From: Sialis fuliginosa | Taxonomy: Eukaryota > Arthropoda > Insecta > Megaloptera > Sialidae | DNA length: 64,000 nucleotides | Direction of reading: 5' to 3' | Assembly (NCBI GenBank): GCA_961205875.1 | Contig: OY540820.1 | Span: 5,084,001-5,148,000 of the forward strand | Shown: positions 2,772 through 55,018 of the stretch, piece by piece | Numbering within the stretch: position 1 is the first letter of the stretch | Layout: the number at the start of each line of letters is the position of its first letter | Made by a program: the position numbers and the translations under genes | The notes under the pieces: generated by a model | Seen by the model: only the letters and a program-made list of their open reading frames with translations | Database searches by the model: none | What the model was told of the DNA's origin: nothing

Positions 2772-4125
2772 AGTAAATGCAGAGTGCTTCCTCTTGCCAA
2801 ATTCACCAAAGGTAGTTAATTATTGAACAATTTATATAAGAACCGATAAAGTGCTCAGATAAATTGCTTAGCATTGGTTAACCATTTAATTTTTGTACAT
2901 ACAATTTTACTAAAAAATATGTTTTTTTCAATCTAAATCTAAATTTCTGCAAACGTCAAAATGACATTTAATATGCCAAAAAAAATATCAATTAAAAATA
3001 AAACAAATGACGATTTTTTAAAGCAAGTGAGATAAATCTTTGTAAGGGAATATTTTACAACAAACTTGTAGACCCAAATTATAGGAAATTGAAAAAAATG
3101 CACGTTTTTTATTATGAACTTTAAACTTATATATTTCAAAACATAATTAAGCTACTTAACCGAATTTTTTATGCATTTCGTCAATTTGTTGACAATACCT
3201 TTCTGCTGTAATTGTTTCACCAGGATTTAAGATGTTGTAGCGGATTAATCCCTGTACAGACCACCAAACGGTCACCATTGTCTTCTTTGGATGCAAACTT
3301 GGCTTTGGAAAGTGTTTAGGAGCTTCAACTTTATTTAATCACTGCCCTAAACATATCCTATTGTAATATAAAACCATTTTTTATCGCACGTTACAATACG
3401 TTCCAAAAATGGATCGTTTTTGTTGCGTATAAGAATCATAGAAAGAATTTCGTAACGACGATTTTTGTGATTTTCGTTTAATTCGTGTGGCACCCATTTA
3501 TCAAGCTTTTTTGTTTTGTCAATCGTAGTTAAATGCCGTGAAATGGTTTCTGGGTCTATTCGTAGCTCTTTTGCAAGTTCTCGAACAGTTGTTTGTGGGT
3601 TAGCTTCCACTATAGCTTTCAACATGTCATCAACAGTAGAAGGACGTCCGCGACCCTCTTGGTCTTCCAAATTTACTTCACCTGCACGAAATTTTCGAAA
3701 CCAACGCCGCACCGTGGATTTATTAATGGACCCCTGCCCCCAAACTTTATTGATGTTTCTGACCGTTTGCGCTGCACTGCAGCCGAGTTTGAACTCATAA
3801 AAATAAATTTTTCTAAAATTTTCACGTAACATGTGTCGTTCTTGGGATATTTTGAAAAAATAAATATTTTGGGATTTCACCCCTCCCCCTTACACACGAT
3901 TTTGATGATTTTGTATTGGGACCGTCATCATGCCAGACCTAACCATCCAACCAAGTTTAATATCGGTCTATTGGTTCATGAGTTATGTGTGTGAGTAGGA
4001 TTCACACGACAGACAGACAGACACAAACAAAGTGTTTGTCTTGTCCTGAAACATAAATATCAATTTAAATTTTGGAAATCTAAGAACTTTTTTATTTTAA
4101 AACGATCACAAAGCTTCTCGTATCT
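2772..4125 (+). repeat. Repeat family J, copy 1 (interrupted by mariner)
   Basis: The left part (2772-3110) and right part (3800-4125) both align, by eye, with the uninterrupted family J sequence at 23,268-23,940 (opposite strand) and partly at 33,872-34,285. Shared landmarks are CTTTGTAAGGGAATATTTTA near 3040, the ACCCCTCCCCCTTACACACG block near 3880, a CAGACAGACAGACA stretch near 4010, and GATCACAAAGCTTCTCGTA at the right end. Copies end at different left positions, which resembles 5' truncation of a retroposon, but no reverse transcriptase is visible. Class unknown. Confidence 0.6.
3158..3880 (-). pseudogene. Decayed mariner transposase (DD34D type), 3' truncated
   Basis: The 177-codon frame 3347-3880 contains the mariner N-terminal region (YEFKLGCSAAQ and GQGSINKSTVRRWFRKF, helix-turn-helix for TIR binding), then the linker KLDKWVPHELNENHKNRR and the segment around the first catalytic aspartate (IVTCDKKW). 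It breaks at 3347: a stop, a short deletion and a frameshift follow. Beyond the break, another frame continues with APKHFPKPSLHPKKTMVTVW and NPGETITAERYCQQIDEMH down to about 3160. The rest, including the second and third catalytic acids, is missing. About the first 24 residues do not come from mariner; they are read from the enclosing family J repeat. Resembles the mellifera-type mariners; dead copy. Confidence 0.9.
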
Positions 4126-24345: not shown

Positions 24346-25152
24346 AGTCTGATGAGAATTCTGGTCTCCGGGTTGTGATTTTATTACAATCTTTATACCG
24401 TGGGGTTGTTTTTTTCTGTTCGTTCTTTTTCGGTTCTGATTTTTCCGTTGCTGAGATTAAATTTTAGCTTTTGAAAATCAGATACAATCTAGAGATGAAA
24501 TATTGTTTCAAAATGCTATATTATAAGTAGTCTGATGAGAATTCTGGTCTTCGGGTTGTGATTTTACGAGTATTACAATCTTTATACTGTGGGGTTGTTT
24601 TTTGGTTCTGATGATTCCATTGCTGAGATAAAATTTTAGCTTTTGAAAATCAGATACAATCTAGAGATGAGATATTGTTTCAAATGGCTATATTATAATT
24701 AGTCTGATGCAAATTCTGGTCTCCGGGTTGTGATTTTACGAGTATTACAATCTTTATACCGTGAGGTTGTTTTTCGGTTCTGATTTTTCCGTTGCTGAGA
24801 TAAAATTTTAACTTTTGAAAATCAGATACAATCTAGAGATGAAATATTGTTTCAAATGGCTATATTATAATTAGTCTGATGAGAATTCTGGTCTCCGGGT
24901 TGTGATTTTACGAGTATTACAATCTTTATACCGTGAGGTTGTTTTTCGGTTCTGATTTTTCCGTTGCTGAGATAAAATTTTAACTTTTGAAAATCAGATA
25001 CAATCTAGAGATGAAATATTGTTTCAAATGGCTATATTATAATTAGTCTGATGAGAATTCTAGTCTCCGGGTTGTGATTTTACGAGTATCTATTACAATC
25101 TTTATACCGTGGGGTTGTTTTTTCGGTTCTGATTTTTCCGTTGCTGAGATTA
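24346..25152 (+). repeat. Satellite: 4.6 tandem units of ~172 bp
   Basis: Units begin AGTCTGATGAGAATTCTGGT at 24,346, 24,529, 24,701, 24,873 and 25,045; spacing is 183, 172, 172 and 172 bp. Units three and four are almost identical. The first is longer because of an extra TTTCTGTTCGTTC segment, and the fifth is cut at about 25,150 where a MITE C copy begins. Confidence 0.92.
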
Positions 25153-25830: not shown

Positions 25831-26208
25831 TTGCGGACGACATCTACAAAGACTCCCGCCCAATTAATTAAGTGCAGAAAGACACCGTCACCTTCACTGG
25901 TACATCCCTCTCACTCATCATCACCACAATTTATCTTTCTCTGTCCAGCACAAATACTCTGCTATCACATTAATATCAACATCTTTAGTTTATTAAAACA
26001 AATCAATTTCATAACTTCTTATAGATCAGGGATGCGCAAACTTTTCATACCGCGTTTTTGTTAAAAATACAAATAGAGTAATCTGGAAATATTTGACATA
26101 CCGTAAACCGGGGTTACTTTACTCCACTTTTATGATTATTTTTTAAAACTCGGAGAAACTGTGGTTTCTAGTCACTAAACTATAATATACACCTTAACCA
26201 CAATAAAA

Positions 26209-26266
26209 CAATGTCACTCGACACGTGTTTCGACTTCACAAGGAGTCCTCATCAGGAGCCTAACAG
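26209..26266 (-). ncRNA. Hammerhead ribozyme motif, core intact
   Basis: On the - strand: CTGATGA (26,255-26,249), stem II GGACTCCTTGTGAAGTC with one C-A mismatch, GAAA (26,231-26,228), stem III CACGTG, then the cleavage triplet GTC (26,222-26,220). Flanking GGCTC and GAGTG can form a short stem I (three pairs and a G-U). The order CUGANGA / stem II / GAAA / stem III / NUH is that of a type I hammerhead with a minimal stem III, the form described for Penelope-like elements and retrozymes. Cleavage is predicted after 26,220. Activity is not shown by sequence. Confidence 0.72.
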
Positions 26267-26388
26267 TTCCAGACTGATATAGTCTTGGTCAAACGTAATA
26301 TAATAAGTTGATTGGTCAAAATCATTGAAGCGAGTTAAGCCCTTTTAGTATATATATTAGGTTTGACCAAGACTATATCAGTCTGGAA

Positions 26389-26446
26389 CTGTTAGGCTCC
26401 TGATGAGGACTTCTTGTGAAGTCAAAACACGTGTCGAGTGACATTG
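26389..26446 (+). ncRNA. Hammerhead ribozyme motif, core mutated
   Basis: Mirror copy of the motif on the other strand. CTGATGA is at 26,400-26,406, with a perfect six-pair stem II (GACTTC/GAAGTC), but AAAA replaces GAAA at 26,424-26,427; CACGTG and TC follow. The changed base corresponds to G12, the general base, so this copy should be inactive. Confidence 0.7.
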
Positions 26447-27095
26447 TTTTATTGTGGTTAAGGTGTATATTTTTAGTTTAGGGTCTATAGAAATAAATAG
26501 AAAAATCGATAGAAATGATTTTTTGCCGTTTAGTACTTATATATGGGATCTAATACAACATATTCACATGGTCACTTATTTGATAAATAGTAAAGTAATA
26601 TTTAATTTTTTTTTTGTTAAAAAGTGGAGCAAAGTTTCCCATAGGCCGGGGTTACTTTGCTCCATTCTATAGTTTTTCATTATAACGCCACTATTTAAGT
26701 AGATAGAGCAAAGTTAAGCATGTGTTTTATCGACTTTTATCCGGGGCTCATGTCTGTCCAAAAAAATTTCAAATATTATACCTATGGATTTTGTTTTTAT
26801 TATAAGAAAATGAAACTACATTTATTCATTAAAAATGTGTAAAGCTACATTGAAACTCTTTTACTAATAGAGCAAAGTAACCCCCACTGGCGCAAAGTAA
26901 CCCCGGTTTACGGTACCTTTTTTATTACTTAATTGCAAAGATTAAGCTAAAAAAATAATAATAGCAAAACAAATTATATTTTTATTGCTCAATTTTAAAT
27001 TATTCAATATTAAAATTCGTAAAAATCAGCTCGCATTTAAAACGCGAAGTAATTGATTAAAGGGTTTGTGACGTCACAAATCGTATTCTGTCATC

Positions 27096-54190: not shown

Positions 54191-55018
54191 CTAATAGTGA
54201 TGTTCTCTATTCACTATTGGACCAGAAAAATTAATTTGTGATGTAGCTCCACCGTGTTGTGGTTGGATAGCATGTTGTTGGAAAACAGGAGCTTGGTATT
54301 GTTGAAATTCATGTTGTTGTTCAACAACTGGTGCAACATGTTGGAACTGTTGAACAGGTATTTGTTTATGAACTACAGGAGCATAATGTTGTTGCTGGGC
54401 AATAGGAGCTGTATGAATTTGCTGATGGAAGATTGGTACAGCCTGTACTTTCTGTTGGATTGGAGCAACTTGGAAATGTTGTTGATGAACTATTGGTGCC
54501 GCTTGGAATTTATGTTGAACAATCGGAGCAGCTTGGAAATGTTGTTGATGAACTATCGGGGCTACTTGTTGTTGTTTACCCTGAGCATAATGCTGTTGAT
54601 GAGGTTGATGCACGGCCTTTCCTTCATACTGAACTTGAGCCTGGAATCCACTATGTTTATCAGCAGTATAATGAACGATACGACGTCTTCCATCAGGTTG
54701 CACCAAACTGTAGTATCCTTTAACAACATCACCATCACGTTCTTCTTTCTGTTCTTTCACATCCCCTGTATGTCCATCGTGGACAGCGTATTCAAAGTGA
54801 TATTTCGCTGGTGCATATTCTTCGTGATGATGGTGATGGTTATCACCATATCCAGCTTGTTGCTGTTGTTGCTGTCCCACATGTCCGTACACAGCTTGTT
54901 GTTGCTGTTGTTGTTGTCCCACATGTCCGTACACAGCTTGTTGTTGTCCGTAACCTTGATGTTGTGCGGATACACAAGCCACAAACAATAATGTAAATAA
55001 TGTGATATAGTTTGCCAT
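54191..55018 (-). CDS. RR-2 chitin-binding cuticular protein
   Basis: Secreted structural protein of the exoskeleton, 275 residues. Residues 1-18 ([18 protein letters not shown]) form a clear signal peptide, cleaved before QHQGYG. Residues 19-67 hold two AVYGHVG plus poly-Gln units and a HHHHH run. Residues 68-133 are the extended Rebers-Riddiford domain of the RR-2 subtype: [49 protein letters not shown], with the aromatic residues that stack on chitin. The C-terminal half repeats API(V/F)HQQHFQ-like units, rich in His and Gln. RR-2 proteins are typical of hard cuticle, and His supports quinone cross-linking. Unlike most family members there is no intron inside the signal peptide. TATA box 70 bp upstream. 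Reading frames in other phases here are shadows. Confidence 0.97.

What the first reader, a model, noticed from the sequence alone, without database searches (positions are those of the whole stretch)
26176..26480. Two opposed hammerhead-ribozyme motifs in one inverted repeat
Each arm has CTGATGA, a stem II, an A-rich GAAA-position block, CACGTG and TC in the order of a type I hammerhead with a minimal stem III. The - strand copy has the intact core GAAA but a C-A mismatch in stem II; the + strand copy has a perfect stem II but G12 changed to A. Opposed copies could leave transcripts cut on one strand only. Hammerheads of this form are established in Penelope-like elements and retrozymes; the head-to-head layout inside a TA-target transposon is what is unusual.
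Basis: partly seen in the sequence, partly recalled or inferred. Interest (0 to 1): 0.72.

Follow-up and report, generated by a model that had tools for sequence, protein, structure and literature searches.

The report
Penelope retroelement insertion with paired hammerheads
The two back-to-back ribozyme motifs are the paired ends of one decayed copy of a very abundant insect retroelement of the Penelope kind that landed inside another transposon; the ribozyme type and the inverted layout are known, but the copies show a strict asymmetry that hints at how such elements insert.

Summary
Each arm of the inverted repeat holds a minimal type I hammerhead core (- strand 26215-26260, + strand 26395-26440), each with one private defect. 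[quoted passage not shown] Related arms lie directly downstream of a reverse transcriptase/GIY-YIG reading frame, and a 47-mer of the motif (up to 3 mismatches) occurs 1441 times in the 392-Mb genome (reversed control 0). The window copy is one 332-bp insertion (26152-26483) in a TA-flanked TIR transposon; 17 of 19 other copies show the uninterrupted site, and two lack that stretch. Inverted pLTRs and minimal PLE hammerheads are published: a new member of a known kind. 'Cut on one strand only' is unlikely: either transcript is predicted to fold arm to arm (about -220 kcal/mol), and a full stem III needs two copies. Unexpectedly, 46 of 46 two-armed insertions examined have one short end and one end with a ~37-nt tail, mostly with ~12-bp target duplications, as if each insertion used two reverse-transcription start sites once each. 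Ribozyme activity was not tested; Rfam scores are below threshold (17.7 versus 34 bits), also in an intact copy.

The parts
26099..26126 (+). left terminal inverted repeat of the host TIR transposon, with flanking TA (26099-26100)
   Evidence: 93% complementary to 26888-26915; host element found in 19 other fetched copies
26888..26915 (-). right terminal inverted repeat of the host transposon, with flanking TA (26914-26915)
26152..26483 (.). whole Penelope-like insertion (332 bp); TC at both edges
   Evidence: 17 of 19 host copies read AAAACTC-TATAG uninterrupted; the other two do not cover that stretch
26151..26302 (-). left arm: pLTR with partly preserved tail at its outer end
   Evidence: blastn map of L046 1652-1803, q440-593; window = L046 + 24499; the match runs one base into the host
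26215..26260 (-). minimal type I hammerhead, core intact, C.A mismatch in stem II at 26243; predicted cut between 26220 and 26219
   Evidence: RF00163 17.7 bits, below gathering
26306..26480 (+). right arm: end of ORF plus pLTR, short end (no tail)
   Evidence: blastn map of L046 1807-1981, q393-567
26306..26348 (+). remnant of the C-terminal codons and stop (CCTTTTAG) of the RT/endonuclease ORF
   Evidence: corresponds to q393-435, the end ...SLKRDKPF* of the L012 ORF
26395..26440 (+). second hammerhead motif, perfect stem II, G12 to A at 26424
26302..26306 (.). junction of the two 5'-truncated arms
   Evidence: the two blastn pieces meet here with 3 unassigned bases

Best explanation
The feature is one 5'-truncated, two-armed insertion of an abundant Penelope-like retroelement in an insect-like genome, nested in a TIR transposon and now decayed. 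Proposed mechanism: the element's protein cuts both target strands about 12 bp apart. Each 3' end primes reverse transcription inside the element RNA, one at a short site just past the pLTR and the other about 37 nt further on, past the tail. The two cDNAs run towards their RNA 5' ends, often stop early, and are joined, which leaves two outward-facing pLTRs. The pLTR carries a minimal type I hammerhead about 20 nt downstream of a likely transcription start. In the intact element it probably works, if at all, as a dimer or with help from the protein. In the window pair both copies are damaged and would be locked in an arm-to-arm hairpin, so the pair most likely does nothing as a ribozyme. Shown: family membership of the arms, pairs, tail rule, target duplications, uninterrupted site in other host copies, motif copy number. 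Inferred: priming order, start sites, ribozyme activity, transcription start.
For: ORFs directly upstream of related arms: RVT_1 E 1.2e-12, and GIY-YIG E 0.0019-0.0039 (below cut-off) with the GIY...YIG motif in place. 1441 genome hits of the 47-mer with at most 3 mismatches, reversed-pattern control 0. 46 of 46 two-armed loci have one tailed and one short end: 23 of 38 loci of the similarity search (one of the 38 a duplicate), 8 of 8 picked from the pattern list (7 as close inverted pairs, L069 as a tandem array), 15 of 20 of a positional sample. Target duplications in 19 of 23 entries by script, against 8 of 400 random placements scoring as high in a near-identical routine. Uninterrupted host site in 17 of 19 copies. 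Published PLE features: inverted pLTR, optional tail at one of them, TSD (PMC3846280, passages); both strands cut and extended, two adjacent internal RT starts matching the tail, HHR cleaving only with protein and dispensable for insertion in vitro (PMC11167929, parts 1 and 2 of 4); minimal PLE hammerheads without helix III that may cleave as dimers (PMC7761336 and PMC6155905, passages).
Against: GIY-YIG is below Pfam's cut-off. No full pLTR-ORF-pLTR copy was found in the loci read. The window copy has only a 2-bp duplication, not 12, and a shortened tail. Rfam scores are sub-threshold. There is no covariation test because the family is too uniform: no shared variants in the core, and the contrast with the flanks is not significant, p = 0.31. 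Single-armed loci exist (for example L077, L081, L090, L094 in the positional sample). No activity data.
Confidence: 0.93

Rival explanations
1. A working pair of opposed ribozymes inside a DNA transposon, tuned so that only one strand's transcript is cut.
For: Both cores are present in opposed orientation and only the - strand core is fully intact.
Against: Each defect is found in 1 of 50 arms; several relatives (for example L010, L011, L012, L025, L026, L042) have both cores intact; each strand folds arm to arm at about -220 kcal/mol; the host transposon lacks the pair in 17 of 19 copies, the other two not covering the site.
Confidence: 0.03
2. A retrozyme (small non-autonomous tandem repeat with a hammerhead that spreads through circular RNA).
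For: One relative, L069, holds four 176-bp tandem units each with the hammerhead.
Against: The window has a single inverted pair, not tandem units. Of the other 65 loci mapped none shows tandem hammerhead units, although L085 has a second, 74% identical piece on the same strand about 590 bp away. The ends are PLE ends with tail.
Confidence: 0.03
3. A foldback or MITE-like DNA element whose long terminal inverted repeats happen to contain a hammerhead-like sequence.
For: Long, nearly perfect inverted repeats; short; many copies.
Against: Arms of one insertion differ in length at both inner and outer ends; 5' truncation points vary widely; longer arms run into RT/endonuclease coding sequence.
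Confidence: 0.02

Closest known systems
Penelope-like elements with pLTR hammerheads (Cervera and de la Pena 2014; Lunse et al. 2017; seen only as citations; not held)
   Same: RT with GIY-YIG-like end, pLTR, inverted pLTR, optional tail, TSD, minimal type I hammerhead lacking a proper helix III
   Different: Extra G between CTGATGA and the 6-bp stem II (an extra core nucleotide is on record for a viroid hammerhead: title of a 2001 paper in the reference list of PMC6155905); the window copy is a 332-bp fossil with a 2-bp duplication
PAc, Poseidon of Anolis carolinensis (PMC11167929, parts 1-2 of 4)
   Same: Hammerhead at the pLTR; two adjacent internal RT start sites that correspond to the tail; both target strands cut and extended
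   Different: In PAc the hammerhead overlaps the start codon, and no start-site difference between strands was seen in vitro; here each two-armed insertion has exactly one of each end
Penelope families of Adineta vaga (PMC3846280, passages)
   Same: Head-to-head inverted pLTRs with a tail at one of them, TSD, TATA plus initiator-like motif in the pLTR
   Different: Described there as of low copy number, over a thousand hammerhead copies here; the word hammerhead does not occur there
Animal non-LTR retrozymes (PMC7229834, passages)
   Same: Type I hammerhead in a mobile element
   Different: [quoted passage not shown] only the relative L069 resembles that

Membership tests
Penelope-like element | telomerase-like RT in one ORF with GIY-YIG endonuclease | tested here: inconclusive
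   RVT_1 above cut-off (48.4 bits versus 29.6); GIY-YIG 17.9-18.9 bits versus cut-off 22.6, motif SGIYKI...YIGQT in place; relation to telomerase not tested
Penelope-like element | pLTRs, with an inverted pLTR completing the insert | tested here: met
   46 two-armed loci
Penelope-like element | optional 30-40-nt tail at one pLTR | tested here: met
   about 37-nt tail, sometimes shortened, at exactly one end in 46 of 46
Penelope-like element | target-site duplication | tested here: met
   19 of 23 entries, 11-16 bp, mostly 12; not in the window copy itself (2 bp)
Penelope-like element | full pLTR-ORF-pLTR copy | tested here: inconclusive
Type I hammerhead ribozyme | conserved core CUGANGA...GAA...(A-U)H with stems I and II | tested here: met
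   majority sequence of 50 arms; extra G noted; of the two window copies the + one departs in the core (G12), the - one in stem II
Type I hammerhead ribozyme | Rfam RF00163 above gathering score | tested here: not met
   17.7 of 34 bits in the window - arm and in an intact copy; so described as a hammerhead-like minimal PLE motif, not filed as a proven ribozyme
Type I hammerhead ribozyme | self-cleavage at the predicted site | not testable with these tools
   needs in vitro transcription
Retrozyme | tandem hammerhead repeats of a few hundred bp | tested here: not met
   window: single inverted pair; one relative, L069, has tandem units

The most novel reading that the evidence does not exclude
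Every two-armed insertion of this element is built by one complex that starts reverse transcription once at each of two fixed sites, one per target strand, so that a short end and a tailed end always come together. The hammerhead lies in the first ~57 nt of the transcript, and many templates were uncut there. The arms thus record, in over a thousand fossils, an obligatory division of labour between two reverse-transcription events.
Probability: 0.65. Interest if true: 0.55.

Novelty: new member of a known kind. Interest (0 to 1): 0.38.

Why it matters
How Penelope-like elements insert is still largely open. The 2024 in vitro study (PMC11167929, parts 1-2 read) found two RT start sites and cutting of both strands but saw no start-site difference between the strands. 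Here 46 of 46 two-armed insertions carry exactly one end of each kind, a sharp prediction for that system. The same copies also allow one to ask from genome data whether insertion templates had been cut by the hammerhead; many had not. The original finding itself is ordinary.

Tried and rejected
Rfam miRNA hits (mir-580, mir-39, MIR860) over the repeat are sub-gathering and follow from the long hairpin. The 172-bp array at 24422-25150 contains CTGATGAG but no CGAAAC match and no Rfam hammerhead hit, so I do not count it as a hammerhead array. Selection on the ribozyme from within-family variation: 0 of 36 core and 4 of 78 flank positions have shared variants, p = 0.31. Run-off ends at the cleavage site: among 61 arm hits of the first set 1 start lies within 2 nt of it (L022 at 524); in the positional sample one arm starts exactly there (L087). 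Partner arms of that sample are not selected for the motif: of 15, 7 reach across the site, 7 start at or beyond it (L087 exactly at it), and in 1 (L084) an internal deletion removed it (read), so use of cut templates is not excluded. Genome counts of 26-mers (up to 2 mismatches) just upstream, just downstream and at q468-493 were 2030, 1852 and 1100: no rise just past the site, but mismatch tolerance differs between words. Target motif: C precedes the duplication on the short-end side in 12 of 19 versus G on the other side in 3 of 19, p = 0.007; the maximal-match rule for duplications biases this, so I make no claim. The 176-bp array L069 as an inserted circular-RNA multimer: the four units differ at 1 position in all while its left arm is 96.5% identical to the query, which suits later DNA amplification or homogenisation as well. 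PDB search with the ORF: no useful relative; NCBIfam: only remote RT models far below their cut-offs. The counts of pairs come from the loci read, not from the whole genome.

Full report
What is in the window. The inverted repeat is real (arms 26184-26302 and 26353-26471, 119 nt, 97%), and both arms read as minimal type I hammerheads on opposite strands. The - strand motif has the full core and a C.A pair in stem II; the + strand motif has a perfect 6-bp stem II and G12 changed to A. The pattern CTGATGAG-N6-24-CGAAAC occurs once in the window and in 0 of 100 shuffles. Rfam's type I model gives 17.7 bits (gathering 34) to the - arm and reports nothing for the + arm.

The family. Searching the window's own genome (392 Mb, 20 contigs; insect-like from an insect cuticle protein; species not identified) with the region gave 104 matches from 40 scored of 1728 candidates. 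I fetched 38 loci around them, one of which, L046, is the window itself and one, L013, a duplicate of L014. The arms found there by pattern mostly read GGCTC-CTGATGA-G-GACTTC-TTGT-GAAGTC-GAA-ACACGTGT-C-GAGTG. In 50 aligned arms no core position has a variant shared by three or more, and each window defect is found once. A 47-mer of the motif with at most 3 mismatches occurs 712 + 729 times in the genome, reversed control 0 + 0. An intact copy also scores 17.7 bits in Rfam.

It is a Penelope-like element. [quoted passage not shown] The window's + arm still holds the last codons and the stop (26306-26348). I therefore read the arms as pseudo-LTRs. Published descriptions match: an inverted pLTR completes the insert and a 31-bp tail is optionally present at one of the inverted pLTRs (PMC3846280, passages); PLE hammerheads are minimal type I motifs without helix III that may cleave as dimers (PMC7761336 and PMC6155905, passages). 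The two primary papers on PLE hammerheads were not held.

Nested insertion. The host is a TA-flanked TIR element (TIRs 26099-26126 and 26888-26915). Of 19 other copies, 17 read AAAACTC-TATAG where the window has a 332-bp insert at 26152-26483 with TC on both sides; the other two (L067, L068) do not cover that stretch. So the layout 'inside a TA-target transposon' is a retroelement that landed in a DNA transposon. This copy lacks the usual 12-bp duplication.

The pair rule. I mapped each locus with blastn using one concrete arm (coordinates q: stop q435, CTGATGA q487, first base after the predicted cut q523, short end about q569, tail end about q606). Of the 38 loci, 23 show two outward-facing arms (L013 left out as a duplicate). 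Of 8 loci chosen from the pattern list, 7 as close inverted pairs and one as a tandem array, 8 do. Of 20 loci taken in positional order on contig 1 from the listed part of the pattern hits, skipping those already fetched, 15 do; L077, L081, L090 and L094 show one arm and L085 is unclear. In all 46 one end is tailed and the other not, 22 with the tail left and 24 right. For L075, L076, L084, L091, L095 and L096 an end was also read by eye from printed flanks; the tail is shortened in L039 and L046, cut by the end of the fetched stretch in L014, and internally deleted in some others. With independent ends and p = 0.5 the chance is about 1.2e-7 already for the first 23. Duplications of 11-16 bp, mostly 12, flank 19 of 23 entries in the first set, L013 standing in for L014 (8 of 400 random placements score as high). 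Two-armed loci are therefore mostly single insertions. The 2024 study of the Anolis PLE found both strands cut and extended, and two adjacent internal RT starts that correspond to the tail, without a strand difference (PMC11167929, parts 1-2 of 4). My reading is that each insertion uses both starts once. My paper searches and the passages read showed the tail described for one of the inverted pLTRs, but no count of this kind.

Where the RNA starts. In the positional sample 14 of 31 arm hits that reach the 3' end begin at q465-468, in the picked loci 11 of 16, in the first set (chosen by similarity to a longer query) 1 of 61. The place is a TCAGTC motif, like an arthropod initiator (recalled); its A (q467) lies 31 nt downstream of the first base of a TATATATA or TATAAATA stretch. 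The end is joined to target DNA in L077 and L081 and to a partner arm that starts elsewhere in L078, L086, L093, L095 and L096, so pairing between two like ends does not explain it. I infer a transcription start about 20 nt upstream of the hammerhead, and run-off of reverse transcription at the RNA 5' end. The predicted cut would lie 56 nt into such RNA. Of 61 arm hits in the first set 55 cross it, but that set was selected for length; of the 15 partner arms in the positional sample, which are not selected for the motif, 7 cross it, 7 start at or beyond it (one exactly at it) and one has lost it. So many templates were uncut, as in vitro for PAc, but use of cut ones is not excluded.

What the ribozyme can do. 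The predicted monomer fold prefers another hairpin by about 10 kcal/mol (-19.2 versus -9.1). Stem III is an 8-nt palindrome, ACACGTGT; fully paired it needs a second copy (a monomer can form at most 2 pairs with a 4-nt loop, -8.2). In the window pair either transcript folds arm to arm (-226 and -220 kcal/mol; shuffles -73 and -66). One-strand cutting is therefore unlikely; activity of the intact family motif is open.

Verdict.

Noticed in passing
L069 (G000:C1:39235600-39237800) 560-1266: Four tandem 176-bp units, each with the hammerhead (pLTR q467-548) fused to about 94 nt of a dispersed repeat, lying between PLE ends (tail on one side, short on the other) with a 14-bp duplication with one mismatch; retrozyme-like. 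The dispersed part gives 43 matches, 4 of them the array itself, from 776 candidates of which 40 were scored.
   Followed up: partly
q465-468 of the arm (L069-L096): Pile-up of 5' ends at a TCAGTC motif 31 nt downstream of a TATA stretch: likely transcription start of the pLTR.
   Followed up: partly
tail of the pLTR (L026, L038, L045, L075, L076): The AGAAACCACAGTTTCT hairpin in the tail is wholly or partly deleted in several copies, as if reverse transcription skipped it.
   Followed up: no
window 24422-25150 and 43-574: Tandem arrays of 172 bp x 4.2 and 175 bp x 3.0; the first has CTGATGAG but no hammerhead core.
   Followed up: partly
window 26099-26915: Host TIR transposon copy; most of the other fetched copies carry several hundred more internal bases, so this copy seems internally deleted near 26836.
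   Followed up: partly
window 3347-3880 (-) and 54191-55018 (-): Mos1-type mariner transposase fragment and an insect cuticle protein gene.
   Followed up: no
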